Part shown: piece by piece, positions 21,045 to 59,220 of the stretch
How the letters are laid out: each line of letters opens with the position of its first letter
Numbering within the stretch: position 1 is the first letter of the stretch
DNA from: Steromphala cineraria
Lineage: Eukaryota; Mollusca; Gastropoda; Trochida; Trochidae
NCBI GenBank assembly: GCA_916613615.1
Contig: OU744725.1
Location: forward strand, 71,735,368-71,799,367
DNA length: 64,000 bases
Direction of reading: 5' to 3'
Made by a program: the position numbers and the translations under genes
Notes under the pieces: model-generated
Databases searched by the model: none
What the model was told of the DNA's origin: nothing
The model's input: only the letters and a program-made list of their open reading frames with translations

Positions 21045-21853
21045 ATGGTTGGCAAGCACTCCCTCCTCCTCCTGGTATCACTGGCTTGTATTGCCCTGGC
21101 AGCTTCAGAAGATTCCGAGACATTTGAAGAACTGGTGGCAAGATCGGAGAGACGGATAGTCAAGAGAGATATCCTCGATGATATCCGTAACGCCTTCAGC
21201 AGTATCGGGGACAGTTTCACCAGCGTGATTGAGCAGATCAAAAGCTTCACGGCGGACAACTATGAGAAGTTCAAGACTTCTCTGGCTAACCTTGGTAAAG
21301 ACGAACAGCAGAAGACGTTCGACAAGCTGAAGGAATACTACGACACTATGTCCGACAAGACGTCGGCCGAGGCTCAGCGAATCAAGGGAACAATGGATGA
21401 ACTTGCAGAAGATATTGCAAATGGTAGATATTGATTTCGTTTTCCGTTATTCATTCGCTTGTGGCTTATATTTTCAGTTGATTCTTAGTGTTTTTTATTT
21501 TTGTTAAGGAATTTTGAAATTGAAACATCCAATCTATTTTGGGAAAGTCTTCGAAAAGTCATCTTTGAAAATTTATATTACATTAAAAAATTAACTGGTA
21601 ATTGATGCAATCTCATTAAAATAAGGTAACTTTGTTGCTATACGAATATGCAGAATTTAGAGAAGAAAATTAACATTTTCATTTGAGATTGAATATTGAA
21701 TATATGAATTATTGAACACTGGAAAAAAATTACTGGCCTTAATTTTATGTTGTTAAGAATATTTCATATTTTGTTGCAGGCTCCGGGTCGCTGAGCTGTT
21801 CACTAGCTGTTGCAACTGTTGCAACCACTTTGACTCTAGCGATTCTGCACTAA
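21045..21853 (+). CDS. C3: small secreted precursor with dibasic sites and GPI-type tail, two coding exons
   Basis: Exons are 21045-21423 and 21780-21853 (phase 1; donor AAATG|GTAGAT, acceptor TTGTTGCAG). The predicted protein has 150 residues. An acceptor TTTCAG ending 21036 just before the ATG implies an upstream non-coding exon. Residues 1-19 are a hydrophobic signal peptide (LLLLVSLACIALA). After an acidic stretch come the paired basic sites ERR and VKR (about residues 33-40), likely convertase targets, then a ~85-residue polar helix-rich domain without cysteine. The second exon adds GSGSLSCS followed by a 16-residue hydrophobic end (LAVATVATTLTLAILH), the layout of a GPI-anchor signal. 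AATAAA lies at 22066. It is paralogous to C1, C2 and relic D. The family is not recognised and the function is unknown. A GPI-tethered or processed peptide is inference. Confidence 0.75.
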
Positions 21854-31900: not shown

Positions 31901-32288
31901 GGTTTTGACTTTTTAAAACATCCGAAAGGTGGTGACTAACTTTCCTTAAGCTGTGAACCCGTCAGTGCTAAGTGTTGCAAGTAACCCATTTACTAGTTAC
32001 ATTCACAATCATATCATTCATGCAGATATTGTCCTGATATAAGATATTGTCTTCCTTTCTAGTGTATGTCTGAAGTACAGACGGAATAAGAAGAGCGTGA
32101 AGATGAATGAGGGTCCAGTTCACTTCCAAGCCGCCACGCCCTCTCCAAGGGGAGTTAACTCTATACCAGAATACCTCCACCTCGTCAACACCAACCACGA
32201 GTATTCACAGCTGTACAACGACGGACGGAGACAGACTTCAGTACATGAATATTCCGAGTTTCATGCTTATGAAACCTTCCAGCCTTAA
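25974..32288 (+). CDS. Gene A: type I receptor, SUEL-like lectin + CUB-like domain, ITAM-type tail
   Basis: Six coding exons: 25974-26022, 26409-26654, 27827-28159, 29467-29802, 30117-30189, 32063-32288. Phases are 1,1,1,1,2; 420 residues. All junctions have GT-AG signals. Signal peptide MLLAASVTALIWLTSA. Residues 17-98 show the SUEL/rhamnose-lectin pattern (LTCGLGEWIHVTEY ... CVGLQSC ... SITYEC). Residues 99-209 look CUB-like (FGLC ... YP ... CSC ... DDQQVWINV) and the next exon supplies a final RMEVSC strand. Residues 215-321 are a Ser/Thr/Pro mucin-like stalk with SATSSLA repeated about three times. One hydrophobic membrane helix (about 322-346, LPVILIISGLALLILVLGSVV) is followed by KYRRNKK and a ~70-residue tail. 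That tail holds EYLHL-VNTNHE-YSQL, i.e. YxxL-x6-YxxL, matching the ITAM spacing, plus YSEF. A cell-surface recognition receptor signalling through SH2 kinases is inferred. Confidence 0.75.
26757..26848. mobile_element. 92-bp foldback MITE with 9-bp target duplication, in gene A intron 2
   Basis: It starts CAATCTAAATAAATTTAGAT and ends ATCTAAATTTATTTAGATTG. Flanks ATATAGAGT (26748-26756) and ATATAGAAT (26849-26857) form a 9-bp duplication with one mismatch. It is a short deletion form of the 12.2-kb element. Confidence 0.75.
26870..26915. repeat. Purine-rich G-tract
   Basis: GGAGGGGGGAAGGAAGG followed by GGGGTGGGGAAGGG in gene A intron 2. It is low-complexity and G-quadruplex-prone. No other function was seen. 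Confidence 0.5.
29363..29375. repeat. C13 homopolymer
   Basis: A run of 13 C about 90 bp upstream of the gene A stalk exon. Confidence 0.9.
30470..30815. mobile_element. ~345-bp inverted-repeat element in gene A last intron
   Basis: The left arm carries CCCCACAGAGGCAGACCAA and TGATACAGCCTCTGTT. The right arm carries AACAGAGGCTGTATCA and TTTGACCTGCCTCTGTGGGG, its reverse complement. The arms are about 65 bp. No ORF. Confidence 0.7.
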
Positions 32289-38470: not shown

Positions 38471-41400
38471 ATGGACAAGCATCTCCTAACATGGTGTTTA
38501 CTAGTGTTGCTTGGGCAAGCCTTTCCAGCACTATCCGGTAAGTAATACACCATCGTGTTTCATCAGTGTTTTTGTATCTGCAGAGCCTACTACACGGAGT
38601 CGAAATCAAATATACTGATGTACAAAAGACAGTACACACCTCATATGCATGATTTTCAATTACAAAATCACGTTTTTGACGTCGTGCCAAAGAAATAACA
38701 AGTGCAGGAAATTAATCATCGATCAGTTGCAAGAAGACATTTCAAAGTGGTTTTTGACTTTTTATTTTTGAATAATTTTTATGAAACAAATCATAAACGA
38801 GCCTCATTCTTCACACATTTTCAACATTTCAAACATGGTGGGGGTAATTTTGATGTAATTGTGATCACCCCTAACTACATTTAAGATATTTTGATAAACC
38901 ATGCTGCAAATATGGGCTATGTTGATCATGTGAAAATCTAATGCATCACATGCCTCTTTCATATTAAATAAATCGAAAATAACTGGATTGTGTTCTTTCT
39001 TTTGTACTCAAGTTAGTCGTTTCATTGATCGCTAATGAATAGATCAACGTCGAATTTGGTCTTGATAGACCAGATACAGGCTCCGATATAGCCTATAAAG
39101 CTTCTATGGAACAATGAATACATCATATATTCTTCAAGTGTAAAAGATGTGAGGTATAACTTAAGTCTAGATGTAAGATTATGTCAATTATGAAAACAAA
39201 CATAATCTAGTTCTCATTATCTTCTTGGGTCTATTAGACTGCTACACATTTTGGAACCACATGTCAATTTACGCCGTGTTACTGGAATTCAGTGTATAGC
39301 ATGTATCCAGAATCATCATCCCTATATGTTAATGTATTACTCATAAGATACCGTATTAAAAATGCTGAAAATTACTGACAGAGTTATGGAGGGTTTTGTT
39401 AATTCCAAACTATTGATAAGGCTCTAATAACAAAGAGACAAGCATCGATTTCAGTACAAATTTACTTACTTGTCAAGATTCTCCGTTTTTCAGAAGGAAA
39501 AGTTTACGTGAATGACCATGTGAACACTGGGAAACACAGAGGAGAGGGTATGGTTGAGCTGACATGTTATGACGGAGAATGGATTAACATCATTAACGCA
39601 CACACATCTAGCTGTTCAGGGGCCTACTGTACTGATAAAGCTTCCCCTCTTGATATGACCCTGCTCGCTGACCTGTGTACAGGGGTACAAACTTGTACAG
39701 AGGACGTCTCCATACCAGCAGATGCTGTCAAGATAGAGGTCAGATACCAGTGCTTGAAAGGTCAGAAGAAGCTTAGGTTTTTTATATTTACAGCAGTGAA
39801 TAAAGTAAATTTTATGATTTTCCATGAAATAGTATTGTTTGACAGGAGTGTTTTGGTATAAGATGTCTCTGAGCGTGATCGAGAAATACGCCATTATTTG
39901 GATAGAGTCTCGTTAGTGTGAGAGAAACGAAAGGTTGACACGATATTGTAGCAGGAAATAAATGGTCATCATTTTATGTGACGTGACGTCACTATAAAAA
40001 CGCGTCAAATGCGTGAGCGATGTATTTTTTGGTGCCAGGTATGTGTGGTAAAAAAATATTGTAAGTTTGGATCTAACTACAATAAAATTATATTTCAAAA
40101 TTATCAATTCTTCAAAGATTGAGGAAAACGCAACAATTGATGTCTATCAAAATGTTACCCGCCAAGCGTTGTTTTATTTGCACTAACATTATGCAGATAT
40201 TTCTTGGGTGTAGAAATAATAAATCAAAATGTTTATATCATCACATTTTCACAACTCTTCATGTTATTCTTTCAGTGAATCCTCATAACCTGTGTGAGGC
40301 TACTGTATCCCCAGTGTTCTACCAGAACCATGTAGATATCCATACTCCCAGGTACCCAGCCAGACAGCGAGACCAGTGTGACGTCCAATGTACGGTCACT
40401 GGTAGTCTGATGTACCTCACCGTTTACAAAAGCGGCGGAATTCACGTACGGGGATTGGTTGACGGTGTTTCAACGTCCCTAAGGTCGCCACAAAATTACA
40501 CCGACGTGAGCATGTTCGAGTTTTCCTATGAAAACACCGGAGTAGACGACCAAGGCACATGGGTGCGAGTATCTGGTAGGTTATCCTTGTGCAGCTCAAA
40601 CTATTCAATGCAGATGATGCTAGAGGAAAAATATAACTTTATCTTTTGATTAAACACTTAATTTTTTCAGGCTAAATGTCCCAGAATGCGATGCGGAACA
40701 GAGGACGTTGTGTATAGCGACGTCAATAAGGTTTCTCATTCTGGTGTAACAATTTTAAGTACTGCCATTTCTGATCTTATATACATTTCTGATCTTGTAT
40801 ACATTTCTGGTTATATATACATTTCTGATCTTATATACATTTCTGATCTTATATACATTTCTGTTCTTATATACATTTCTGATCTTATATACATTTCTGA
40901 TCTTATATACATTTCTGATCTAATATACATTTCTGATCTTATATACATTTCTGACCTTATATACATTTCTGACCTTATATACATTTCTGATCTAATATAC
41001 ATTGCTGTTCTTATATACATTTCTGATCTTATATACATTTCTGATCTTATATACATTTCTAATCTTATATACATTTCTGATCTAATATACATTTCTGATC
41101 TTATATACATTTCTGATCGTATATACATTTCTGATCTTATATTACATTTCTGATTTTATATACATTTCCGATCTAATTTACATTTCTGATCTTATATACA
41201 TTTCTAACCTTATATACATTTCTGATCTAATATACATTTCTGACCTTATATACATTTCTGATCTTATATACATTTCTGATCTAATTTACATGTCTGATTT
41301 TATATACATTTCTGATCTTATATACATTTCTGATCTAATATCTATTACGTCACATGCGTTTCAGGTAATGGGGCAAGATTGCAAGTTGACTGTAAGAGTT

Positions 41401-44400
41401 CTCACTCAACTACTGCTGCCCCTGGTAGAAGCTCACCTGTTACGAGACCAACTCAAGGTGTTGTTGGATGGGGGGTAGAGGACACTCCAACAGTTGACGA
41501 TGACACATTCAAACAAGACAAGAATGAAAGTAGGATTCCTCATGAAGGGATTTTCAACTCTGCTAGGCTAATGCGAAATTTTAGATATAGATGAAAAGGT
41601 TTACTGAAATAGTTCAAAAACGTTTAGAAAAACGGAATGAAATTTATCCTACCTCATGTAAGAATCTCGATCTCTGATTGGTCCACGTGACCCTGAATAA
41701 ATACTGATATCCCTCTCTTGAGCGGGGAATAAATCATTATACCCCGGCACATAAAAAGCATGAAAAAAGCGTGCAGACGGAGCGTCTTGAAATGTACAAT
41801 GTATGTTACCTCGAACACATGATTAAACTGGTTACTTTTGATCAACCGATATGTAGCTTTGAACAAACTATAGTAAAATGACTTACGAATTTCTTACCCT
41901 TTATCTTCATATTATATGCGTTTTGTTTAAACATTCGGTAAGATAAATTCGTTATAACATTCAAAGGCGGGGTACACGGGGAGATATCCGCCTCTCGCTT
42001 GGTGTTATGCAACTCGCCTTCGGCTCGTCGCATAACACCAAGTTTGAGGCGGATGTCTCCCCGCGTACCCCGCCTTTGAATGGTATAACTTATAATGTCC
42101 GCGACTGTTAATTATAATGACGATGTGGAGGATTTATTTTGCGAAACGACATATAGGGCTATTACACATGGTAGGGTTTGATAATCGATATTGAGGTTTA
42201 TAATGTACCTTGAGATATGGAAATGTTGGAAAATAATGGGCGTCGATTTAATGATGAACTATTTGCATATGGTGCATTAATATTTTCCTTGCAAACTGAC
42301 CAAGCTTAAATGACCAAGAACGAAATTACTCGTAGATATTAATCCCTTTCATCCTCTAAGAGGAATTCAGCTGACCTAAAGGTTTTCGTTTCAACAGAAT
42401 ATGGATTCTTTCTTTTATCGTTCAGATTTCAAGACACTTTTTTGAACGTTTTAATGACAGTAGCATCTAATAAGACCTAACATATGAATTGCAAATCAAA
42501 AACATTTATTCAATAGAAGTGTGTTGAGGTATTACTCCTAGTTGATTCTGATGCCGATGAGCCCGAGTCTACTCTGGTTGGTGATTCTAAGTAATATGAA
42601 TTAAGACAATAGCACATGTATTTATTCAATATGAGTGTGTTGAATTCCATTATCAAGATGTATATTTCTATTGGAGACATTATAGACTGGTCATGAGGTC
42701 AATACCTGCTTTTATAGACCCGAGGAAAACAATATTGACAGAGAACGAAGTCTCAATATTGTTTTCCTCGGGTCTATAAAAACAGGTATTGACCGAATTC
42801 ACCAGTCCATAATTGTTTTATTATGTCGCGGTTAAAACACGAAAAGGAAATAGAAAACTACAAGAATGAGCGGCATTTCGGCTCGATTGTTGGCGAGGAA
42901 GGATCAATGACGTCATAACAATAGCATGACGTCATGAAACAACTGTTTGACGTCATCGGTTCAACTGAAGTCAATATCACTTTTGGTCGGACTCGGGGTC
43001 ACGGGGGTCAAGTTAATATCACTTTCTGTCGACTGTCACGTGACCGGTTCTCGACCAATCGGATTGCCGGAAAATAACGCTTGCATAATAAAAGTTAATA
43101 TCACCGATCAATATATTTACTTCTAGCTGATTCTGACGCCGATGAGCCCGAGTCTACTCTTGTTGGTGATCTTCTGGGTGGTTTGCTGGCCCTCATTGTT
43201 GTTCTCATCATTGGTCTAGCAGTTACAGTGTGAGTAGAATCCATTATTTATCAGTGTTACATAATTTCTATCTGTGTGTTTTCATGCCATTTGGAAAAGT
43301 AGAAACCTCATCAGTATATTCGAACATTACAGCATTTCTTACTGTGTTAGTCCTAGAAATAAAACTAAGTTTTTTTCTGGTATCGACCCGCGTCAGTTTC
43401 AAAAACCTTCATCAAGCCTTTTAACCCGAGATGTTGACAACGGAAAAATGTAGTTCAGTGGCCTGGGAACATACTGAACGAAAACTTGTAAAATGTTATT
43501 TTGTTTTGTTTGTGTAAGCCTCCACAGCTGCAGTGATAAAGTGATCCGAGGTGATATTCGTTTATTTCTTTCATTTTTATCAAATTCAATAATCAAAACA
43601 AAGTTTGAATTTTAAAAATCCGGATTATCGCATCATTTTTGCCTGTATGCAAAGACCAGAAACATTTTGTCTTTTGGTCTTATCCTTCCGTTTCGAATTG
43701 CAGACTCTTTTGCAAGAGAAAGAAGTCAACAGGATCCTCTAACAACGAAGATTCACTCACACAGGTGAATAAACTACCAGATGTCCCTCCAAGACCATCA
43801 GTCAGGCCTCAGCGTCCAGTCCCTCCCCAGGGAAACGATGATGGCTATCTCACCCTAGTTGAGTCGACCACACAGGTCAATAAACCGGCGGTCAGTTCAC
43901 GACCATGTCCAGTCCCTGACGAGGGAAAAGAAGATGGCTACCTCACTCCCGTGGAGACAACCACACAGGTCATTAAACAATCAAATGTTCCTTCACAACA
44001 GCGTCCATTCCATACCCAGGGAAAAGAAGATAACTACCTAACACCGGTTGAGTCAACCACACAGAACAATGAACCACCAAATGTTCCCTCACCACAGCGT
44101 CCAGTCCATACCCAGGGAAAGGAGGATAACTACCTTACACCGGTTGAGACAACCACACAGGTCAATGAATCAAATGGCCCTCCTAGACCAGCGGTAAGGA
44201 CACTAAAGGGTCCAGGCTCTGACCAGGGTCCGGAGGATGAATACCTCACCCCAGGAGAAAGGTCATCGCCTAACGCTCTACTAGGTTACGATAAGATAGA
44301 ACAACCTGTGTACTTGGAGCTTGAAAATCCTGCTGAATACACAGACCTTGATGTGTACGATACCATCGGAGAGGCAAAGACTGAAGAGTACACAACACCT

Positions 44401-44415
44401 TACTCGACCAGTTGA
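38471..44415 (+). CDS. Gene B: type I receptor, SUEL-like + CUB-like ectodomain, long YLTP-repeat tail
   Basis: Six coding exons: 38471-38537, 39494-39760, 40276-40575, 41365-41529, 43127-43229, 43704-44415. Phases are 1,1,1,1,2; 537 residues. The exon plan matches gene A. Signal peptide MDKHLLTWCLLVLLGQAFPA. Residues 23-111 are SUEL-like (ELTCYDGEWINIINA ... LCTGVQTC ... IEVRYQC). Residues 112-211 are CUB-like (LC ... TPRYP ... CDVQC ... DDQGTWVRV), closed by RLQVDC in exon 4. A short acidic stalk precedes the membrane helix (about 278-301, LLGGLLALIVVLIIGLAV), then KRKK. The tail has proline motifs (PPRPSVRPQRPVPP, SH3-type) and five ~32-residue repeats centred on YLTL or YLTP. YxxP suits Crk-class SH2 domains. 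The C-terminus has YLEL-x5-YTDL-x2-YDTI, one residue short of ITAM spacing. A phosphotyrosine scaffold receptor is inferred; the ligand is unknown. Confidence 0.75.
38612..39012. mobile_element. Diverged relative of the 45-kb TA-MITE, in gene B intron 1
   Basis: Its ends, GTACAAAAGACAGTACACACC and TTGTGTTCTTTCTTTTGTAC, echo the TIR of the 44977-45507 element. Interior words match too: ACGTTTTTGACGTCGT versus GAGTTTTTGACGTCGT, and AACATGGTGGGGGT versus AACATGGTAGGGGT. Confidence 0.6.
40765..41341. repeat. 18-bp minisatellite, about 32 copies, in gene B intron 3
   Basis: The unit TTCTGATCTTATATACAT repeats in near-perfect tandem. Because 18 is divisible by three, it leaves long open frames on both strands (YISDLI and MYIRSE repeats), which are not genes. 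The array ends only 20 bp before the acceptor of the stalk exon at 41365. Confidence 0.95.
41950..42092. repeat. ~140-bp palindrome in gene B intron 4
   Basis: The left arm has CATTCAAAGGCGGGGTAC and GGTGTTATGC. The right arm has GCATAACACC and GTACCCCGCCTTTGAATG. The loop contains TCGCCTTCGGCTCG. It is markedly GC-richer than its surroundings. Confidence 0.85.
42542..42594 (+). CDS. Partial copy of the gene B membrane exon ending in a stop: possible soluble-isoform exon
   Basis: Acceptor TTACTCCTAG then 53 bp that duplicate the start of the 43127 exon (TTGATTCTGATGCCGATGAG). After exon 4 (phase 1) it would encode IDSDADEPESTLVGDSK and stop at 42592, before any membrane residues. That would give a secreted ectodomain. 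A donor-like AA|GTAATA in phase 2 would instead join to the tail exon and drop the membrane helix. The counterpart in unit 2 is 49018-49070. It could also be a dead exon. Confidence 0.35.
42680..42813. repeat. 134-bp palindrome in unit 1
   Basis: ATTATAGACTGGT ... GAGGAAAACAATATTGA mirrored by TCAATATTGTTTTCCTC ... ACCAGTCCATAAT. Its duplicate lies at 49162-49299. Confidence 0.9.
42908..42955. promoter_or_regulatory. Triple CRE cluster in gene B intron 4
   Basis: TGACGTCA at 42908, 42927 and 42948, about two helical turns apart, and about 170 bp before the membrane exon. The copy in unit 2 has sites at 49392, 49411 and 49432. Binding by CREB/ATF-type factors is inferred from the motif only. 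Confidence 0.45.
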
Positions 44416-44688
44416 AATCGCATTAAAAACAGATCACATTTTTATAATGGCTCAACTCAAATTGTATGATAATCCTATATATGCTTTGGCCGCTGTTGAA
44501 GTAGTAGAACTACATAAGAAAAAATATCATCGTTCAACATGTGGTAGGAATATGTTTACGTAATGTATATGTAACCTTTGTTGGAATATTGTTGGAGTAG
44601 CACGTGAACTTAAGCATATTGTATGAAATTTATTCTCAATGCTAAAGCTCTGACACTTCTGTTCGACAGTTTCATGTTAACATTTATC

Positions 44689-44694
44689 AATAAA
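44689..44694 (+). terminator. Gene B polyadenylation signal
   Basis: AATAAA, 274 bp after the gene B stop. The unit 2 copy is at 51172. Confidence 0.5.
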
Positions 44695-44976
44695 TGAAAA
44701 TTTGTAAATCCAAAAATGAATATTTTTATCGTGAAAAATAGAAAATAACTACAATGTAACTCCATAGCTAGTTGCTGAAACAATAGCTTCCTCGACAGTG
44801 GGCGATACAACCCCTTTCTTAGTCCTTGCAAACAGAATTGCAATCGATGTAAACGTTTGTATAATAGTCTGTTCTGAATTGACTTGGGCTGTAAACGATG
44901 CAAATTTTCATCTTTTAAACTCCTTAAAATCAACAAAATCTTACTGCGCTACGGTAAAACAACTTATTTTCAAATA

Positions 44977-45507
44977 AACTCACGAGCAAAAGAAAGTATA
45001 ACACTCAGTTGTATTTATCATATGTAAAATTTTCAAAGTCAGATATCTCGAGTTTTTGACGTCGTTTTCCAAAAATGACTTGTTTGGAAAATTAGTCCAA
45101 AACATTAAATAAATAAAAGAATACCTCTACGCGGTTTTTTAAATTTAAAAAAAAAAATTAAAAATTCAATATTAAAATTTCCCTAAATTTATTTTGACAA
45201 TACACAACTTTTCATCGACATATAACACATACTCTGTGTGAAAATCAATAAATGTTCATCGTCATGCACACATTTACAACATTTTGAACATGGTAGGGGT
45301 CATGTTGGTGTAAATTTCATTTCTTACCCTAGTCTACTTTAAATGATGACATTTAAGTGAAAATATAAAACAGTCACCAATAAAGCCATTCAAACTACAG
45401 CCGAAAGGTGTTATTGTCTGCTTCCATAATCAAATGCATCTTATTTCTTTAAAATATTGAATTAATGGAAAACAAGTGAGTGTTATACTTTCTTTTGCTC
45501 GTTAGTT
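44977..45507. mobile_element. 531-bp TA-flanked MITE present only in duplication unit 1
   Basis: Its 29-bp ends match with one mismatch and read ACGAGCAAAAGAAAGTATAA at the left, inverted as TTATACTTTCTTTTGCTCGT at the right. TA is duplicated at each side. Unit 2 shows the empty site (CAAATATATGAATT at about 51460) with a single TA, so the borders are exact and the insertion postdates the duplication. No transposase. Tc1/mariner-type non-autonomous element. Confidence 0.92.
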
Positions 45508-46612
45508 TATATGAATTAAAACAGTTCGACAGGTTCATACGAAGTTTGAAGCAAGGCTATGAACAAAATGTCCCTAACAGCACATCTCTTAGTCTAATAT
45601 TTGTATTCTGTTTTTATTAAAATTGTATTATTCCTAGAAATTAATTTATAGAACAAAAAGGAAGTAAGCATGGTCTGCTATAAGCAAAATAACATTATTT
45701 CGTTCGATCACGTGGTGACTGATGAGTATATAATAAATATTCGTATATATCAATAAATGGTAATATTGATAAGCTGGCATAGTTGATCTGGACACAAAAC
45801 ATTTTTTGCTAAACCAAACAAAATACAATAGACACATGTTAATTTCTTATTAACGTGAAGGGCATAAGTCTTATTTTCTTTTGATGTTTTTAAAGTAAGC
45901 AAATCGTTGGTTAGCACCTTAGCAAGATGTTTGTAATGTATATGCTCTGTAACTAGTTCATACTTCAATTCCTCAGACAACAATTGAACGTGTTTTGCCA
46001 AAAAGCAAGCCACTCTGTATCATCTACGAAACTTATAAACGTATGAATGTGAAGCAATCCGTGTGAATTCTGCCTACTTTTGCATTTACATCCAGGCATC
46101 ATTTACATTAAAACTTCAACATTTTCCAAAATCATTCACTCCGGAAACATGAAGGCAACTTCACGCAACATGTTCATACACAATTCATGCATACACAACT
46201 CGGGCAACATTTGCATTTCAACCAGGGTTCTGATGGGTTTAAAACCAACAGACACATATATGATTTTCCGTGGTTGAAACTTTGAGTTATTTAGTTCATT
46301 CAAGCATTTATTCCCCTAATCATTTCATAATGTTTTTCATTTATAACGTGGGATTTAAAGCGAATATAAATGAGGTTGTAGAATAATACATCAAGGACAA
46401 AAGACGAGGTTTAGCAAGTCATCACAACACTCATTTACCTTGCAATAACATCCCCCTCTGTCTATAAATATGAACGTGGGTTGAGGAGAGTATAGTATAG
46501 TACTAGTGAATATGGTCATATCGCATGTCACACTGTGACGAAATATAAAGTTAATTCTGAACCTCCCAGTTCCGATAATCAAAGCTGTGTATAATGTCAT
46601 ATTTCCGCTATG

Positions 46613-46722
46613 TAAGTGACACATCCGATATCTTCAGTATAAGTACTCGTACTCCCGAGTGACTTATAATCAGTGTGTCAGAGGGATCATCATCGAAGTC
46701 TCTTGTCTGCAGTCTGGTACAT
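46613..46722 (+). other. Putative non-coding first exon and promoter of C1
   Basis: The donor GGTACAT|GTGAGTATACTT (GT 46723) pairs with the acceptor CTTCTCCAG ending 48179, 17 bp before the C1 ATG. CTATAAATA at about 46461 and TATAAGTA at about 46638 are candidate TATA boxes. The unit 2 copy has its donor at 52674 and acceptor at 54130. Confidence 0.4.
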
Positions 46723-48196
46723 GTGAGTATACTTAACTTATCTACGACTACTAGAGTATGCAGATGCATATCAAAAGTTTGGGCACCTACAGCTGTTTAC
46801 TTCCAAACCATCTGGGAAACAATGTATATCAACATATGCAGTTTGGTTGAAAATTTTTGGATTTTGATTTTGCTTTGCCTATATGATTCTGTACGTCATT
46901 TATCTACATATATCATCTTTATTTGATAATGTGATCATCTATATGAGATTTAAAAGAGAAAAGTTTTAATATTTTTAAAATAAATTTCATTGAGCTGACA
47001 AAGCTGGACAAAGGATAGATATGGCAATTAGACTATGCTAAGGTACATTGAATCGCTTCTGTGATTAACACACAACATCATAAATGTTCCATCTGCCATG
47101 TCATAATAATCTAAAGACCTCAGAATCATATCTGCACTAGAAATACCAAATGCATGTCACCAAACTTTTGGGATGCAGCTGAAAACTCCATTGGACGGGA
47201 AGTCACTCAGCAGTTTTGTGATGTATTCTAGTTATCATGTACAAGTAGTTATGGAAATAGATTTCTTTCAAATCTTAAATCATGAATACTATTTATTATT
47301 TAATTTAAACTTTGATGGGACATAAACTGAGATACTTCATCAAAACCTCATTTTGTCCAGTATTTTCAAATCATATTTGAAAGTTGGTTAAACTTTTAAA
47401 AGTTTGTTTTTCTTCTGATCGTGTTGTTATTTTGTATCTGAAAGACTGAAGATGCTACAGTGATACTCAACACAGAACGTTTTTCAATACTTACTTATTT
47501 ATTACTTTAGTATGTCATAAGCCATTTGCATATATGGATTTTTTTATACCTTTATATTGAACATTGTGGGTTTTTTTAAACATACGGACAAATTTAAATA
47601 TATTTGAAACGGTCAGTGATAAAATGGTCAAAGCTATAAAATATCATTATTAAAAATAGGATTTAGGACTTTCTGATTGAATTTATACATTGTGATAGTT
47701 GTTATTGGTGCAATTATTCTAGCGCTGTTAACTAGCATAACGTGCGTGTGTTTGTAACATAAAGACATATTTATTATGGTCATTATAGTGTTTGTATATT
47801 ATTGAACTTAACAATTCTGTGGATATCCCTGACTAAGTGTTCATTTGCTGTATTTTGATTTCATTTGTCGAAGTAATTATATTGATTAAAATTAGCATAA
47901 GAAAACAAACAGCACATCAACCATCATACTTGAAATAATTAGTTAAGTTTTACATCGGCTACAAAGTTAAATAAATAACAGTGATATTAGTGTTTCCACA
48001 ATATTGATTATGTCATGAAATAAAGACAATCCTTCCATCTTCCAAAATAAGAAAGTGTCATATCATTGGCTGATTATCTTGATTAAACTTGTTTGAAATA
48101 AATAAGACGACGAGAGATTCCTTGATGCAAATAAGTTGATGTAGCAATTAGATTGTAGCAAGTTCCTACTCTTCTCCAGCTCTTCAACCCACGACC

Positions 48197-50901
48197 ATGA
48201 AGCTGACCATCGGGTGCTCCCTGCTGTGTGTGACTCTCCTAGTTCTGGTTCAGATGTCAGGTTCAGACGGAAGTTCAGACGCCAGTTCAGACCTCTACCT
48301 AAGCAGACAAAAGAGAGGCTTTTATGATGATCTCATCGATGCGCTAGTGACCAAGTTCAGCAAAACGGTCTCCAAAATCTTCGAGCTGGACCCTAAAGAC
48401 TTCGAGACCTTCATCAGATCCCTGGGAAGAATCTCCAAGACTCTGGCCAAGAACATCCTGAAGAAGTTTCTCGAGTTCAAAGATAAGAATTTCGATTTTG
48501 GTAACAAAGAAAACTTTGAAAGGGTCAGCGCAATGATGGACACACTGGACGAAGTTGATCAACGTCAGGAAACAAGTGGTACGTCAGAAACAGGAGTGCT
48601 TAATATTAGTATTTACCGAGCGAGAGCGAGGGATGTACTGATATCTATGCACGAATGTCGTAAACAAAGTATGTCATGGGCACGAATTTAATATTCTGTT
48701 TATTCTCGTTATCTACTCTATGGATTAGCCGTGGTCAGCCCAAATAGGACTCTGACGTCAAAGCATTGTGCATAATATGACGTCCCAATTAAAAGGTGAT
48801 TTTTAATGTGATTATAGTTATAATATGCCTTTTTGCGAGGAATTCAACTGACCTAAAGTTTTTCGTTTCAACAGAATATGGATTCTTTCTTTTATCGTTC
48901 AGATGAAAGACACTTTTTTTGACGTTTTAATGAAAGTAGCATCTAATAAGACCTAACGTATGAATTGCAGATCAAAAACATTTATTCAATATAAGTGTGT
49001 TGAGGTATTACTTCTAGTTGATTCTGATGCTGATGAGCCCAAGACTTCTCTGGTTGGTGATTCAAAGTAATATGAATTAAGACAATAGTACAGGTATTTA
49101 TTCAATATGAGTGTGTTGAATTCCATTATCAAGATGTATATTTCTATTGGAGACATTATACAATTATAGACTGGTCATGAGGTCAATACCTGCTTTTATA
49201 GACCCGAGGAAAACAATATTGACAGAGAACGAAGTCTCAATATTGTTTTCCTCGGGTCTATAAAAACAGGTATTGACCGAATTCACCAGTCTATAATTGT
49301 TTTATTATGTCGCGGTTAAAAAACGAAAAGGAAATAGAAAACTACAAGAATGAGCGGCATTTCGGCTCGATTGTTGGCGAGGACGGGTAAATGACGTCAT
49401 AACAATAGCATGACGTCATGAAACAACGTTTTGACGTCATCGGTTCAACTCAAGTCAATATCACTTTTGGTCGGACTCGGGGTCACGGGGGTCAAGTTAA
49501 TATCACTTTCTGTCGACTGTCACGTGACCGGTTCTCGACCAATCGGATTGCCGGAAAATTACGCTTGCATAATAAAAGTTAATATCACCGATCAATATAT
49601 TTACTTCTAGCTGATTCTGACGCCGATGAGCCCGATTCTACCCTGGTTGGTGATCTTCTGGGTGGTTTGCTGGCCCTCATCGTTGTTCTCATCATTGGTC
49701 TGGCAGTTACAGTGTGAGTAGAATCCATTATTTATCAGTGTTACATAATTTCTATCGGTTTGTTTTCATGCCATTTGGAAAAGTAGAAACCTCATCAGTA
49801 TATTCGAACATTACAGCATTTCTTACTGTGTTAGTCCTAGAAAAAAAACTAAGTTTTTTTATGGTGTCGGCCCAGCGTCAGTTTCAAAAACCTTCATCAA
49901 GCCTTTTTACCCAAGATGTTGACAACGGAAAAATGTAGTTCGGTGGACTGGGAACATACTGAAACGAAAACTTGTAAAATGTTATTTTGTTTTGTTTGTG
50001 TAAGACTTAACAGCTGCAGTGATAAAGTGATCCGAGGTGATATTCGTTTATTTCTTTCATTTTTATCAAATTCAATAATCAAAACAAAGTTTGAATTTTA
50101 AAAATCCGGATTATCGCATCATTTTTGCCTGTATGCAAAGACCAGAAACATTTTGTCTTTTGGCCTTATCCTTCCGTTTCGAATTGCAGGCTCTTTTGCA
50201 AGAGGAAGAAGTCAACAGGATCCCCTAACAACGAAGATTCACTCACACAGGTGAATAAACTACCAGATGTCCCTCCAAGACCATCAGTCAGGCCTCAGCG
50301 TCCAGTCCCTCCCCAGGGAAACGATGATGACTATCTCACCCTAGTTGAGTCGACCACACAGGTCAATAAACCGGCGGTCAGTTCACGACCATGTCCAGTC
50401 CCTGACGAGGGAAAAGAAGATGGCTACCTCACTCCCATGGAGACAACCACACAGGTCATTAAACAATCAAATGTTCCTTCACAACAGCGTCCATTCCATA
50501 CCCAGGGAAAAGAAGATAACTACCTAACACCGGTTGAGTCAACCACACAGAACAATGAACCACCAAATGTTCCCTCACCACAGCGTCCAGTCCATACCCA
50601 GGGAAAGGAGGATAACTACCTTACACCGGTTGAGACAACCACACAGGTCAATGAATCAAATGGCCCTCCTAGACCAGCGGTAAGGACACGAAAGGGTCCA
50701 GTCTCTGACCAAGATCCGGAGGATGCATACCTCACCCCAGGAGAAAGGTCATCGCCTAACGCTCCTCTAGTTTACGATAAGATAGAACAACAAGTGTACT
50801 TGGAGATTGAAAATCCTGCTGAATACACAGATCTTGATGTGTACGATACCATCGAAGAGGCAAAGACTGAAGAATACACAACACCTTACTCGACCAGTTG
50901 A
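48197..50901 (+). CDS. Predicted chimeric gene C1-B': secreted C domain joined to B' membrane helix and YLTP tail
   Basis: Exons are C1 48197-48578 (donor AAACAAGTG|GTACGT, phase 1), B' membrane exon 49611-49713 (acceptor TTACTTCTAG, phase 1 in, phase 2 out) and B' tail exon 50190-50901. Together they make 1197 nt, 398 residues, open throughout. Residues 1-127 are the C-family signal peptide, the RQKRG convertase site and the helical domain. About 139-162 is the membrane helix. The rest is a B-type tail with YLTL, four YLTP, YLEI, YTDL and YDTI all kept. C1 has no copy of its own GPI exon before the duplication junction, and B' has no ectodomain exons, so each fragment is the other's only local partner. 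If unspliced, C1 instead reads through to a stop at 48691 (164 residues). Splicing is predicted, not observed. Confidence 0.5.
49018..49070 (+). CDS. Unit 2 copy of the stop-containing partial membrane exon
   Basis: It follows acceptor TATTACTTCTAG and encodes IDSDADEPKTSLVGDSK then TAA at 49068. In the chimera it would end C1 as a soluble product. The frame and stop are kept in both units despite substitutions. Confidence 0.3.
49162..49299. repeat. Unit 2 copy of the intron palindrome
   Basis: CAATTATAGACTGGT at one end and ACCAGTCTATAATTG at the other, slightly longer than the unit 1 copy. The CRE triplet follows at 49392-49439. Confidence 0.9.
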
Positions 50902-53900
50902 AATGGCATTAAAAACAGATCACATTTTTATAATGGCTCAACTCAAATTGTATGATAATTCTATATATGCTTTGGCCGCTGTTGAAGTAGTAGAACTACA
51001 TAAGAAAAAATATCATCGTTCACCATGTGGTAGGAATATGTTTACGTAATGTATATGTAACCTTTGTTGGAATATTGTTGGAGTACGTGAACTTAAGCAT
51101 ATTATATGAAATTTATTCTCAATGCTAAAGCTCTGACACTTCTGTTGGACAGTTTCATGTTAACATTTATCAATAAATGAAAATTTGTAAATCCAAAAAT
51201 GAAATTTTTTATCGTGAAAAATAGAAAATAACTACAATGTAGCTCCATAGCTAGTTGCTGAAACAATAGCTTCCTCGACAGTGGGCGATATATATACAAC
51301 CCCTTTCTTAGTCCTTGTAAACAGAATTGCAATCGATGTAAACGTTTGTATAATAGTCTGTTCTGAATTGACTTGGGCTGTACACGATGCAAATTTTCAT
51401 CTTTTAAACTCCTTAAAATCAACAAAATCTTACTGCGCTACGGTAAAACAACTTATCTTCAAATATATGAATTAAAACAGTTCGACAGGTTCATACGAAG
51501 TTTGAAGCAAGGCTATGAACAAAATGTCCCTAACAGCACATCTCTTAGTCTAATATTTTGTATTCTGTTTTTATTAAAATTGTATTATTCCTAGAAATTA
51601 ATATATAGAACAAAAAGGAAGTAAGCAAGGTCTGCTATAAGCAAAATGACATTATTTCGTACGATCACTTTATGACTGATGAGTAGATAATAAATATTCG
51701 TATATATCAATAAATGGGAATATTGATAAGCTGGCATAGTTGATCTGGACACAAAACATTTTTTGCTAAACCAAACAAAATGCCATAGACACATTATTTC
51801 TTATAAACGTGAAAGGTTTTAAGTCTTATTTTCTTGTGATGTATTTAAAGTAAGTAAATCGTTAGTTAGCACATTAGCAAGATGTTTGTAATGAATATGC
51901 TCTGTAACTAGTTCATACTTCAATTCCTCAGACAACAATTGAACGTGTTTTGCCAAAAAGCAAGCCACTCTGTATCATCTACGAAACTTATAAACGTATG
52001 AATGTGAAGCAATCCGTGTGAATTCTGCCTACTTTTGCATTTACATCCAGGCATCATTTACATTAAAACTTCAACATTTTCCAAAATCATTCACTCCGGA
52101 AACATGAAGGCAACTTCACGCAACATGTTCATACACAATTCATGCATACACAACTCGGGCAACATTTGCATTTCAACCAGGGTTCTGATGGGTTTAAAAC
52201 CAACTGACACATATATGATTTTCCGTGGTTGAAACTTTGAGTTATTTAGTTCATTCAAGCATTTATTCCCCTAATCATCTATCTATTTCATTTATAACGT
52301 GGGATTTAAAGCGAATATAAATGAGGTTGTAGAATAATACATCAAGGAGAAAAGACGAGGTTTAGCAAGTCATCACAACACTCATTTACCTTGCAATAAC
52401 ATCCCCCTCTGTCTATAAATATGAACGTGGGTTGAGGAGAGTATAGTATAGTACTAGTGAATATGGTCATATCGCATGTCACACTGTGACGAAATATTAA
52501 TTTTATTCTGAACCTCCCAGTTCCGATAATCAAAGCTGTGTATAATGTCATATTTCCGCTCTGTAAGTGACACATCCGATATCTTCAGTATAAGTACTCG
52601 TACTCCCGAGTGACTTATAATCAGTGTGTCAGAGGGATCATCATCGAAGTCTCTTGTCTGCAGTCTGGTACATGTGAGTATACTTAACTTATCTACGACT
52701 ACTAGAGTATGCAGATGCATATCAAAAGTTTGGGCACCTACAGCTGTTTACTTCCAAACCATCTGGGAAACAATGTATATCAACATATGCAGTTTGGTTG
52801 AAAATTTTTGGATTTTGATTTTGCTTTGCCTATATGATTCTGTACGTCATTTATCTACATATATCATCTTTATTTGATAATGTGATCATCTATATGAGAT
52901 TTAAAAGAGAAAAGTTTTAATATTTTTAAAATAAATTTCATTGAGCTGACAAAGCTGGACAAAGGATAGATATGGCAATTAGACTATGCTAAGGTACATT
53001 GAATCGCTTCTGTGATTAACACACAACATCATAAATGTTCCATCTGCCATGTCATAATAATCTAAAGACCTCAGAATCATATCTGCACTAGAAATACCAA
53101 ATGCATGTCACCAAACTTTTGGGATGCAGCTGAAAACTCCATTGGACGGGAAGTCACTCAGCAGTTTTGTGATGTATTCTAGTTATCATGTACAAGTAGT
53201 TATGGAAATAGATTTCTTTCAAATCTTAAATCATGAATACTATTTATTATTTAATTTAAACTTTGATGGGACATAAACTGAGATACTTCATCAAAACCTC
53301 ATTTTGTCCAGTATTTTCAAATCATATTTGAAAGTTGGTTAAACTTTTAAAAGTTTGTTTTTCTTCTGATCGTGTTGTTATTTTGTATCTGAAAGACTGA
53401 AGATGCTACAGTGATACTCAACACAGAACGTTTTTCAATACTTACTTATTTATTACTTTAGTATGTCATAAGCCATTTGCATATATGGATTTTTTTATAC
53501 CTTTATATTGAACATTGTGGGTTTTTTTAAACATACGGACAAATTTAAATATATTTGAAACGGTCAGTGATAAAATGGTCAAAGCTATAAAATATCATTA
53601 TTAAAAATAGGATTTAGGACTTTCTGATTGAATTTATACATTGTGATAGTTGTTATTTGTGCAATTATTCTAGCGCTGTTAACTAGCATAACGTGCGTGT
53701 GTTTGTAACATAAAGACATATTTATTATGGTCATTATAGTGTTTGTATATTATTGAACTTAACAATTCTGTGGATATCCCTGACTAAGTGTACTTTTGCT
53801 GTATTTTGATTTCATTTGTCGAAGTAATTATATTGATTAAAATTAGCATAAGAAAACAAACAGCACATCAACCATCATACTTGAAATAATTAGTTAAGTT

Positions 53901-54147
53901 TTACATCGGCTACAAAGTTAAATAAATAACAGTGATATTAGTGTTTCCACAATATTGATTATGTCATGAAATAAAGACAATCCTTCCATCTTCCAAAATA
54001 AGAAAGTGTCATATCATTGGCTGATTATCTTGATTAAACTTGTTTGAAATAAATAAGACGACGAGAGATTCCTTGATGCAAATAAGTTGATGTAGCAATT
54101 AGATTGTAGCAAGTTCCTACTCTTCTCCAGCTCTTCAACCCACGACC

Positions 54148-54981
54148 ATGAAGCTGACCATCGGGTGCTCCCTGCTGTGTGTGACTCTCCTAGTTCTGGT
54201 TCAGATGTCAGGTTCAGACGGAAGTTCAGACGCCAGTTCAGACCTCTACCTAAGCAGACAAAAGAGAGGCTTTTATGATGATCTCATCGATGCGCTAGTG
54301 ACCAAGTTCAGCAAAACGGTCTCCAAAATCTTCGAGCTGGACCCTAAAGACTTCGAGACCTTCATCAGATCCCTGGGAAGAATCTCCAAGACTCTGGCCA
54401 AGAACATCCTGAAGAAGTTTCTCGAGTTCAAAGATAAGAATTTCGATTTTGGTAACAAAGAAAACTTTGAAAGGGTCAGCGCAATGATGGACACACTGGA
54501 CGAAGTTGATCAACGTCAGGAAACAAGTGGTACGTCAGAAACAGGAGTGCTTAATATTAGTATTTACCGAGCGAGAGCGAGGGATGTACTGATATCTATG
54601 CACGAATGTCGTAAACAAAGTATGTCATGGGCACGAATTTAATATTCTGTTTATTCTCGTTATCTACTCTATGGATTAGCCGTGGTCAGCCCAAATAGGA
54701 CTCTGACGTCAAAGCATTGTGCATAATATGACGTCCCAATTAAAAGGTGATTTTTAATGTGATTATAGTTATAATATGCCTTTTTGCGACAGATACCATT
54801 CATGATCGTCAATGTGTGTCATTACCATTTTGTAAAACCACTGCTCCATAAAATAACAGAAAGATGATATTTTTCAAATACTGCTATTATATTGTTCTAT
54901 CATGTTGCAGGAGCTTCCAGTCTGAGTTGGTCGACTGCTCTGTGTCTACCCTTGTTTGGAAAGATTGTTCATCTTTTGTGA
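54148..54981 (+). CDS. C2: complete small secreted precursor with GPI-type tail
   Basis: Exons are 54148-54529 and 54911-54981 (phase 1; donor CAAGTG|GTACGT, acceptor CATGTTGCAG); 150 residues, the same length as C3. Signal peptide at about 1-20 (LTIGCSLLCVTLLVLVQMSG), a Ser/Asp linker, RQKRG (about 37-41), then a cysteine-free domain rich in amphipathic helix (FYDDLIDALVTKFSKTVSKI and later LAKNILKKFLEF). The last exon gives GASSLSW and a hydrophobic end, aligning with GSGSLSC of C3. AATAAA lies at 55049. The first exon is identical at protein level to C1. Function unknown. The processing site and GPI-like end suggest a cell-surface or released peptide, which is inference. Confidence 0.75.
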
Positions 54982-55048
54982 GCTCGAGGCTTTCTGAGAA
55001 ACAAGCAACTTTATACGAACTGTTTATCATCTAATTATACATTTGTAC

Positions 55049-55054
55049 AATAAA
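55049..55054 (+). terminator. C2 polyadenylation signal
   Basis: AATAAA, 68 bp after the C2 stop. Confidence 0.65.
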
Positions 55055-55202: not shown

Positions 55203-58200
55203 TTTTTTTTTTTTTTTTATTCCAGCAAGAGTATAGTACAGTTACATGAGCATGACAAAGTAAAAGTGGTTATTGCCACGACAGTCAGGTTATCAAAGGT
55301 TACATGGCTCTGGTGTACATTAAGAAGGCAAAGTAAATATACCTAGTTGCATTTAAAGGTATTTGAAAGTGGAGACCATTTATTTTCAAAGGCATTTAAA
55401 CGTTGGTTTTTACATACAATAAATTTGTCAATGGCATAGACTTGTTTGTAAGTTTTAATAGCTTTATCAAATGATAAGGCTTCACCTTTGAGGCTACTTA
55501 AGAAAATATACCTTTTGCTCAATAAAATAAGGTGATTGAGCAACTTATGTTGCGCATTAAAGCCAAAGAGAATAGTATTTGTATCCAGAGAAATGCCCCT
55601 TTTTATATGGGCATTAATGAACAGTTCCACTTTCAACCAAAAGTCTTTTACAAATTCACAATCTATAAAGACATGAAACAGGTTTTCTTTCTCAGAATTG
55701 CAAAAGGAACAAATATCATCATTAACAAGTTTCATGACTTTCAATTCTTTCTTGGTGTAAATAATACAATGCAGAAATTTAAATTGGAATTCTAACAGTT
55801 TGACATCCCTTGTTGAGCTTCTGTACTGGACAAAAATATCTTTCCAGTTATAAGATGACATATCAGTCTTTTAAGCCCATTTTTCACAAATTTTCGGATA
55901 GGAATGACATGTAATCAAGCGATCATAAAAGTATCTTTATCCCTTTTCTGACATAAGCAAGACTAAGACATTTTTATTGATAATCAAATTTGATTTAATA
56001 ATACAAGTTTGCTGATTGATATATTTCTTCCATAAAGCTGGAATAGAACAAAGCAACTTGTTGTTCTCAAGAAAAGTTCCTCGAATATTATATACCTTTT
56101 TTACTTCTTCAAAAGCCATTAACCCAGTTGAATTACAGATATCCTTGATACAGTGCAATCCTCTATCATACCAATTGTGGATGAAAAATGTTTTGTCTTT
56201 AAAGAAATGGTTAAACCATAAAGGTTGGGATAAAATATGATCAATATCATCATGAGAATAGTAATCAGATCTTAGATATTTAGACCATGCGTTCAAAACG
56301 CTTCTCCAATAGGGATTCGTACACACTTTTAATAAATCAATGTTAGCCCCAAATGTAAAAATTTTGTCTAAAGGGAAGTGGCTTGGATTCTTAAAGTTGA
56401 GGTTTTGTGCACACTTTCTTAAGTTGGATAGTTTCAAAGCCTGAATAAAAAAGTTAATATCTATCATTCTAAGACCCCCTTCCTCATATTTCCTAACCAT
56501 ATTGATTCGTTTAATCTTATCCCTTTTCCCATTCCATAAGAAGTTATAAAGTATCTTATTCAGGTCCTTAACAACATCTACAGGTGGGGTAGGTAGTGCA
56601 GAAAATATATGTACCAGAGTGGATAGAGCTAGGGATTTAATGACAGTTATTTTACCAATCAGCGTAAGTGGTCTGTGCTTCCAAGAAGCAAGAATTCTTT
56701 TTACGTTTTCAATTCTTTTTCTTTTATTGATTACCCAAAGGTCTTGAAGTTCTGCATTGAGGGTAATTCCAAGAATTTCAAAATTACCAGAGTGCCAGTC
56801 TAGGTATAGATCTTCACAAAGTTTAATCTTTTTACCAGCCATTGAGCCTATCCAGATAGCCTGAGTTTTTTCAATATTCATTTTGAGGCCTGACATTTTA
56901 TAAAAAGTATTTAAGGTTTCAATAGCCGCTTTTAGACTTGATTCAGATCCATCTAAAAAAAGTTGAGTGTCATCAGCGTACTGACCTAAGTCATGTACCT
57001 GTCCATTTAAAGTAATACCTTTAATTTCTTTGTTTTGTCTGATCATACTCCCAAGAATCTCAGCTACAAATAAGAAAAGGTAGGGGGATATAGGGTCTCC
57101 TTGTCGACAACCTCGTTCATTCATAAAAGAAGAAGACAGATGGCCATTCTGAATAACATATGAGGTAGCATTATTAGACAAAATTGAGATCCATTTTCGA
57201 AAATTAATTCCGAAACCAAATTTTTTAAGTACTAACATGATGAAATCTTTACAGTGTCAAAAGCCTTTTCGAAGTCTACAAGCAGTAACATCCCCAGTCT
57301 TTTTTGTTCCTTCAGTTTAAACATTATATCATACAGTAATCGGGTGTTATCACTGATGCATCTTCCTGGTATAAAGCCAGTTTGATTTTCATGAATAAGA
57401 GATGATACGGTTTTTTTAATCCTTATAGTAAGGACTGAGCTTATAATTTTATAAACTGAATTCAAGAGTGAAATAGGCCTCCAATTTTTTTAAAGTTTCC
57501 TATTCTTATTGGATTTAGGAATACAAGTAATCACACCTCTGTTCATTGTTATAGGCAACATGTTTTTTTCAAATACTGCCGTAATATACCTGAAAATCCA
57601 TTTCCTAAGTCCTTTCCAAAAAAATTTGAAAAAGTCAATTGGAAATCCATCCAAACCGGGGGATTTGTTATTTTTCATTGATTTAACTGCAGAGGCTATT
57701 TCTCTAAGATCTAATGGTTTTTCTAATTCCTCTATCATTTTTGTATCAAGAGATGGCACTGCAACATTATTCAAAATAGCTTGGGTATCTACCGATGTAA
57801 CATCACTAGATCTAAATAAGTTTTCATAAAATGTCTTTTGTTCTCTAATGATCTCCTTACCATCAAAAATTTCCTCTCCATTCTCTTTAATTAAAGAATT
57901 CATTAATTTATTGGTATAATGGCGATTTTCCAAATGACAAAAATAGTTGGTTGGCTTCTCACCTTCTTCATACCAAAGAGCTCTATTTCTAAAGTCACGA
58001 TCCCTGATTTGTTGTTGTTTAATTTCTCAGAAGATAAATCTGCAAGGAGATCCTCACTTACAGCTTGGAAATTATCTCTTATTTCATCTTCCCTTTCTTT
58101 GATTTTATTTTCTAGTTCAGCCGTATCAAGGTTCTTTTGCTTCTTATAATAGGTTGCATAAGAAATACTTTTGCCTCTGACATTCATGAGAAAGGTCTCT

Positions 58201-59220
58201 GAAAATAGTTGGTCACTTATAGTTAGTTCCAAATTTTGGTCTTCAATCTTTGACAGGTCTTCTGAACTTGAGACATTTTTAGCATATTCAAGCTTTGTTT
58301 CCGAAAGTGTTTTCTTAACAAGATCACTATATTCACTTGATCTCAGAAGAGATGTATTGAATTTCCAGTAACCTTTTCCCCTATTCCTACTTAAAGAGTT
58401 AGAAAGGGTAAGTGTAACAACTGAATGGTCCGACTTATAACCTGGAAGAATATCTGCTGAAAGTGTAAGATTTTCTATATCCTGGGAAATTAAGAAAAAG
58501 TCAAGACGTGCTTATTGTCTTGGGTTTTTTTTCCACCAAGTATATTTTCTATTTGTTGGATTAAGATCTCTCCAGATATCAACTAAGTCGTTATTTTCTA
58601 TTTCGTTGATAAGTTCTAGTCGTGCTTTCGGGTTATTTATATTTTTGTAGTTTTCAAGGTCAACTGCTGGGTTTAAGACCAGGTTCCAGTTCCCACAAAT
58701 TACTTAAGAGTTATTTTCAAAGTCATCTATGTCAGCAAATAAAGTTTTGTAAAAAGTGGGGTTGTCAGAATCGGGTCCATATAAATTTGCAAGAGTCAGT
58801 CTTATACCATCAATTGTTGCGTCAGCTATGATAAAATTTCCATTATTTTCTTTCTTAAATCTATTAATCTTAATTTCAATGTTATTATTAAAGAGAATGG
58901 CTACACCTCTAGCATTTGATTTAAAAGGAGCGATAATACTTGAGAGACCCCATTCATTTCTCATAGTAGATTCTAATTCTTGGGATATATGAATATCTTG
59001 AAGGCAAATCACTGAAAACTTTTTTTTCCTCCATATATTCATAATTTCTTTTCTTTCTGTTTTTCTGCTAGGCCTCTACAGTTAAGGGAGACTATCTTGA
59101 TATTATTATCATTATTTTTCTTACTCATGATCAACATATTTGAACCTAGTGAAATACATGTAACTACAGGTAAACAATGGTAAAAATTGTATGCTGGGTT
59201 TTAAGATATTATTATTATTA
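55203..59220 (-). mobile_element. L1/Tx1-like LINE, 5'-truncated, inactive
   Basis: The minus-strand element is bounded by the direct repeat AGACGTTACTTT (55190-55201 and 59221-59232), a target-site duplication. Its 3' poly(A) shows as about 20 T after 55200. The single ORF2-like region starts near 59128 (MSKKNN...VSLNCRGL). It runs through an AP-type endonuclease (58704-59042; VICLQDIH, ANLYGPDSD), reverse transcriptase (57933-55937; KNNKSPGLDG, GFIPGRCISDN, DFEKAFD, QGDPISPYLF, YADDTQLFLD) and a C-terminal part with a Cys/His-containing segment (55861-55343). At least five frame breaks or stops make it non-functional. No ORF1 was found, so it is probably 5'-truncated. Clade assignment rests on remembered motif style. 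Confidence 0.9.

What the first reader, a model, noticed from the sequence alone, without database searches (positions are those of the whole stretch)
48197..50901. Tandem duplication appears to have built a chimeric receptor gene
The 6-kb duplication cut gene C after exon 1 and gene B before its membrane exon. C1 exon 1 ends in phase 1 with a good donor, and the next usable acceptor, 1 kb downstream, is the B' membrane exon, which needs phase 1. The join is open for 398 codons: signal peptide, RQKRG site, helical C domain, membrane helix and a tail with all tyrosine motifs preserved. A GPI-type or secreted peptide would become a signalling membrane protein. This looks like a new gene formed by exon shuffling between two gene families in one step.
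Basis: partly seen in the sequence, partly recalled or inferred. Interest (0 to 1): 0.88.

Follow-up and report, generated by a model that had tools for sequence, protein, structure and literature searches.

The report
Newborn chimeric receptor from tandem duplication
In a likely animal genome, a tandem duplication of about 6 kb set the first exon of a predicted small peptide gene, cut off from its own predicted membrane-anchor exon, before copied predicted membrane and tail exons of a neighbouring receptor-like gene; the parts are in matching frame and would likely be spliced into a new signalling receptor, but no RNA has yet been checked.

Summary
Window 42360-48838 is repeated in tandem at 48837-54789. 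The breakpoints lie in an intron of receptor-like gene B and in intron 1 of gene C. C1 keeps exon 1 (48197-48578, phase-1 donor) but lacks exon 2, predicted here at 54911-54981 in C2 only: 23 codons, GPI-signal-like, AATAAA downstream. Relatives E (window 21045) and F (5 Mb away) have the same plan: phase-1 intron, then a 23-24-codon hydrophobic exon. C1 is thus an orphan exon whose next in-phase hydrophobic exon in the scan is B' 49611; the 398-codon join is open. C's upstream region and B's 3' end were copied too. Splicing, expression and function are inferred. Chimeras from tandem duplication are a known kind; exchanging a GPI-type exon for a tyrosine-tail module is the unusual part.

The parts
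42360..48838 (+). first copy of the tandem duplication: end part of gene B, intergenic stretch, C1 exon 1
   Evidence: blastn of the window against itself
48837..54789 (+). second copy: B' (membrane and tail exons), intergenic stretch, C2 exon 1
   Evidence: lacks the 44977-45507 insert
48830..48845 (+). duplication junction, 2-bp overlap GA
   Evidence: by eye from 42300-42420, 48560-48860 and 54511-54900 printed
48197..48578 (+). C1 exon 1: hydrophobic start, RQKR site, helical domain (predicted); phase-1 donor gtacgt
   Evidence: no difference to 54148-54529
48579..49610 (+). hybrid intron (predicted): repeat sequence from C intron 1, then the B' copy of a B intron
49018..49070 (+). decayed copy of the membrane exon with acceptor-like start; would give VDSDADEPKTSLVGDSK then stop
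   Evidence: present in B at 42542
49611..49713 (+). B' membrane exon (phase 1 in), donor gtgagt
50190..50901 (+). B' tail exon with 11 tyrosines, 5 YxxP, 5 Yxx[LI]; stop
51172..51177 (+). poly(A)-type signal after the B' tail (AATAAA by eye)
   Evidence: also one at 50908
54148..54529 (+). C2 exon 1
54911..54981 (+). predicted C2 exon 2, GPI-signal-like (GASSLSWSTALCLPLFGKIVHLL), absent from C1
   Evidence: one match for 54800-55000 in the genome
38471..38537 (+). predicted signal-peptide exon of gene B
39494..39760 (+). gene B first ectodomain exon (bounds approximate)
   Evidence: resembles window 26474-26710 of gene A
40276..40575 (+). gene B second ectodomain exon
   Evidence: resembles window 27715-28173 of gene A
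43127..43229 (+). gene B membrane exon
43704..44415 (+). gene B tail exon
21045..21423 (+). gene E exon 1, relative of C, phase-1 donor gtagat
21780..21853 (+). gene E exon 2, GPI-signal-like (predicted)

Best explanation
A tandem duplication of about 6 kb placed a copy of predicted gene C's first exon, cut off from its own predicted GPI-type exon 2, 1.0 kb upstream of copied predicted membrane and tail exons of gene B, and the transcript from C's presumed, copied promoter region is predicted to splice these in phase 1 into a 398-residue membrane protein. Shown by sequence: the two copies, the junction, the absence in C1 of the 54911 stretch, the matching phases and the open joined frame. Inferred: that C2 54911 is the true exon 2; that the C1 donor is joined to 49611, as B's own transcript would have to do across the same upstream decoys; that the protein keeps the C helical domain outside the cell and gains B's tyrosine-rich tail inside. 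It would then share its outer domain with the C2 product, predicted to be GPI-anchored, and differ in anchor, a short stalk and the tail. The enabling feature is that the border before the anchor exon in the C family and before the membrane exon in the gene B model is phase 1 in both, so breakpoints inside these introns give an in-frame join.
For: Duplication and breakpoints. Phases and 398-codon frame. In 48579-50300 the scan for a hydrophobic phase-1 exon (crude acceptor score above 0) returned 49611 alone. The C family plan, exon 1 + phase-1 intron + 23-24-codon hydrophobic exon, is seen in E, F and C2, and in D, which resembles C in plan. A scan of 144 kb (at least 7,500 of them N) on both strands for such exons gave 6 hits, among them the E, C2 and D exons; 54911 is the only one with AATAAA within 200 bp (its thresholds were set after C2 and D were known, just low enough to keep them, so E is the one independent success). 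C resembles E and F in the mature domain (2 and 1 of 5000 shuffles reach the C-E score, 0 of 5000 the C-F score). No indel in 815 bp of B' exons against 11 in 2942 bp of non-coding sequence (chance 0.047); dN/dS 0.41 between B and B' exons (p 0.046).
Against: No RNA evidence. Three acceptor-like sites before 49611 score higher, and 49018 would give a short secreted form. dN/dS and the lack of indels may reflect constraint on B alone if the copies come from two haplotypes. Tyrosine preservation is expected by chance. An assembly error cannot be excluded without reads. The 54911 exon was missed by the first scan and found with looser thresholds.
Confidence: 0.55

Rival explanations
1. Non-functional by-product: C1 and B' are fragments left by the duplication, either silent or spliced to decoy acceptors, and they will decay.
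For: [quoted passage not shown] Higher-scoring decoy acceptors lie upstream of 49611. Tyrosine preservation is uninformative.
Against: Frame, splice borders, 3' end and upstream region are intact at 2-3% divergence; no indel in the exons.
Confidence: 0.3
2. C1 makes an ordinary C protein: its exon 1 is spliced past B' to the C2 exon 2 at 54911, so the duplication only adds a promoter and an exon 1.
For: 54911 is in phase and has a better crude acceptor score (3.3) than 49611 (0.25).
Against: The intron would be 6.3 kb and would skip the B' exons, C2 exon 1 and the poly(A)-type signal at 51172.
Confidence: 0.08
3. Assembly artefact: two haplotypes of one locus were laid end to end.
For: Divergence of 2.8% in one part, 0.14% in another, and a 531-bp stretch present in one copy only look like allelic differences.
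Against: No N in the window; the junction is a sharp join with a 2-bp overlap between two sites inside introns. Two matches to C exon 1 were found in the assembly, both here, and no separate haplotig (40 of 539 candidates scored, 4 of 4 scored).
Confidence: 0.07

Closest known systems
Chimeric genes from tandem duplications in Drosophila yakuba (Rogers, Shao and Thornton 2017, PMC5460883; abstract and passages read)
   Same: [quoted passage not shown] 76 chimeric genes are given there among 1116 duplications.
   Different: Those were studied with RNA-seq. The word 'membrane' does not occur in its main text, so no exchange of an anchor exon for a membrane plus signalling-tail module is described in those words.
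Dog CEACAM1-related receptors (PMC2110893; passages read)
   Same: Membrane and cytoplasmic exons are said to be exchanged together during evolution; CEACAM28 and CEACAM1 have a nearly identical ligand-binding domain with different signalling motifs; relatives carry GPI signal exons.
   Different: Exchange there is within one immunoglobulin gene family; here two families without detected similarity are joined and the C outer domains of the two copies are identical.
Sdic of Drosophila melanogaster (PMC7475035; start of abstract in search listings only; origin as a tandem-duplication chimera recalled)
   Same: New tandem gene family that began as a chimera of neighbours (recalled).
   Different: Cytoplasmic dynein chain, not a receptor; expression and function established (recalled).

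Membership tests
Chimeric gene formed by tandem duplication | tandem copies with breakpoints inside two neighbouring genes on one strand | tested here: met
   (genes as modelled here)
Chimeric gene formed by tandem duplication | 5' part of one gene (with its upstream region) directly before the 3' part of the other (with its 3' end) | tested here: met
   C1 exon 1 with 1546 bp upstream differing at 3 places from C2; B' exons followed by a poly(A)-type signal
Chimeric gene formed by tandem duplication | open reading frame across the join | tested here: met
   398 codons, provided 48578 is spliced to 49611
Chimeric gene formed by tandem duplication | chimeric transcript | not testable with these tools
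   no RNA data held
C peptide family (named here) | exon 1 with hydrophobic start, dibasic site and helical domain, then phase-1 intron | tested here: met
   C1, C2, E, F; D in plan only (its mature domain: 289 of 5000 shuffles reach the C-D score)
C peptide family (named here) | short GPI-signal-like exon 2 | tested here: not met
   not met for C1, which ends before it; met by prediction for C2, E, F, D
SUEL lectin or CUB receptor (resemblance of the gene B ectodomain, recalled) | Pfam match to the ectodomain exons | tested here: not met
   no Pfam family up to E 1 for the two B exons and one A exon tested; longer ORFs around the B exons gave only weak unrelated matches below cut-off

The most novel reading that the evidence does not exclude
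A paired-receptor system caught at birth: in one duplication a GPI-anchored helical peptide gained a twin with the identical outer domain but a five-YxxP signalling tail, so that one locus now makes a silent and a signalling form of the same recognition domain, kept identical by gene conversion.
Probability: 0.25. Interest if true: 0.75.

Novelty: new member of a known kind. Interest (0 to 1): 0.52.

Why it matters
Receptor chimeras are mostly inferred long after the event. Here both parents, the junction, the lost exon and the copied flanks can be read side by side, so the question whether exon shuffling can turn an anchored peptide into a signalling receptor in one duplication can be tested with ordinary RNA reads and population samples. 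It also brings out a peptide family (C, E, F, perhaps D) lying among receptor-like genes with which it shares intron phase, and for which no database match was found (C and D searched; E and F not).

Tried and rejected

Rejected: that the frame after the donor is the real C-terminus (stop at 48691): that stretch is a repeat family with dozens of matches in the genome. The first scan for a C2 exon 2 returned one hit, inside the antisense of the retrotransposon; 54911 appeared after I loosened the hydropathy window and thresholds (19 candidates, 54911 with the best acceptor score). It became convincing through relatives E and F found later. The control scan used thresholds set after C2 and D were known. 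Donor and acceptor scores use weights recalled from memory and are crude; no GPI or signal-peptide predictor was run.

D was first taken as a C relative (2 of 2000 shuffles for the whole exon), but its mature domain alone is not significant (96 of 2000; 284 and 289 of 5000).

Papers: searches (10 of 10 listed; 15 of 50; 2 of 2; 10 of 16; 10 of 54; 1 of 1). No title listed names this locus or a GPI-to-signalling swap by tandem duplication; I read passages of two papers only.

Full report
What is there. Self-comparison shows one tandem duplication around the finding: 42360-48838 repeated at 48837-54789, with a 531-bp stretch (44977-45507) only in the first copy. At the junction the sequence leaves C intron 1 (TTTTGCGA) and enters a B intron (GAGGAATTC), with two shared bases (by eye). 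There is no N in the window. Two matches to C exon 1 were found in the assembly, both here, and two to the B tail.

Gene models (predicted from sequence). Gene B: signal exon 38471-38537, two ectodomain exons, a stalk exon from 41365 (its donor uncertain; the three candidates listed all leave phase 1), membrane exon 43127-43229, tail exon 43704-44415. Its ectodomain resembles gene A of the same window (26.4-28.2 kb) but matched no Pfam family. C exon 1: 382 nt, phase 1, with a hydrophobic start, RQKR, and a domain modelled as helical.

The missing exon. C1 stops at the breakpoint, 259 bp into its intron. In C2 the sequence goes on and, 122 bp beyond the breakpoint, has an acceptor followed in phase 1 by GASSLSWSTALCLPLFGKIVHLL and a stop, with AATAAA at 55049. 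The same plan is found in gene E (21045-21423 and 21780-21853: GSGSLSCSLAVATVATTLTLAILH) and gene F (L024:1486-1843 and 2514-2584: GASYLKSSILGVTVLVLLCKILF). D (L011:3776-4271 and 4789-4862) shares the plan but not significant similarity in the mature domain. A scan of 144 kb, both strands, for a good acceptor with a short hydrophobic phase-1 exon gave 6 hits, among them those of E, C2 and D; its thresholds were set with C2 and D in view. The hydrophobic ends fit a GPI signal by the usual rule (recalled); no GPI predictor was run.

The join. From the C1 donor to 49611 is 1032 bp. The joined reading frame has 398 codons. There are 54 AGs in 48590-49620: 49611 scores 0.25; three of the other 53 score higher (48903: 5.55; 48875: 2.7; 49202: 2.0) and each is followed by at most 20 codons before a stop. 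A decayed copy of the membrane exon at 49018 would stop after 17. B's native intron holds the same sites (for the three, for the decayed exon), so if B is made as a membrane protein its transcript must pass over them; the hybrid intron is expected to behave alike. This is inference.

Selection and age. B and B' exons differ at 13.5 non-synonymous of 613 sites and 10.5 synonymous of 200 (dN/dS 0.41, p 0.046). No indel in 815 coding bp against 11 in 2942 non-coding bp (0.047). Both are weak, and without an outgroup cannot be assigned to B'. The copies differ at 107 of 3759 bases over 42361-46650 (the one-copy stretch left out) but at 3 of 2186 over 46651-48836 (p 6e-18). Either the C part was converted later, or the duplication joined two haplotypes that already differed.

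Tail. The B' tail keeps 11 of 11 tyrosines: 5 YxxP, 5 Yxx[LI], one long-spaced Yxx[LI] pair. YxxP is a binding motif of Crk-type SH2 domains (recalled). Preservation of all tyrosines among 13 changes has probability 0.58 without constraint.

Comparison. Chimeric genes from tandem duplications that cross gene borders are known; 76 are given among 1116 duplications in D. yakuba (PMC5460883, passages). Joint exchange of membrane and cytoplasmic exons, and receptor pairs with near-identical outer domains, are known from CEACAMs (PMC2110893, passages). This case belongs to the first kind by anatomy; the anchor exchange between two families without detected similarity is its distinguishing feature. 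Transcription is the untested defining step.

Verdict. Observation confirmed; interpretation partly supported; interest moderate, rising sharply if spliced RNA is found.

Noticed in passing
window 21045-21853, L024:1486-2584, L011:3776-4862: Peptide genes with hydrophobic start, dibasic site, helical domain and GPI-type exon 2 (E, F; D in plan only); no relative in the protein database for C or D (E and F not searched).
   Followed up: partly
window 25974-32288: Gene A (exons partly read by eye): receptor-like relative of gene B with signal, ectodomain, Ser/Thr-rich stalk, membrane exon and a short tyrosine tail; the B tail found no match there.
   Followed up: partly
window 44977-45507: 531-bp stretch with inverted ends (by eye) present in the first duplication copy only.
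   Followed up: no
window 48590-48804 and 54541-54755: Interspersed repeat family with dozens of genome matches beginning 11 bp after the C donor in both copies.
   Followed up: partly
window 55343-59075 (-): Non-LTR-type retrotransposon remnant with a reverse transcriptase match (PF00078) downstream of C2, spread over several frames.
   Followed up: no
window 40766-41341: Array with 18-bp period directly before the gene B stalk exon.
   Followed up: no
L011 about 6692 (minus strand) and 7195-7401 (minus strand): Further GPI-signal-like exon AGTAVSVSVLPLLLFAALAALFN not far from a cysteine-bearing ORF; another family perhaps.
   Followed up: no
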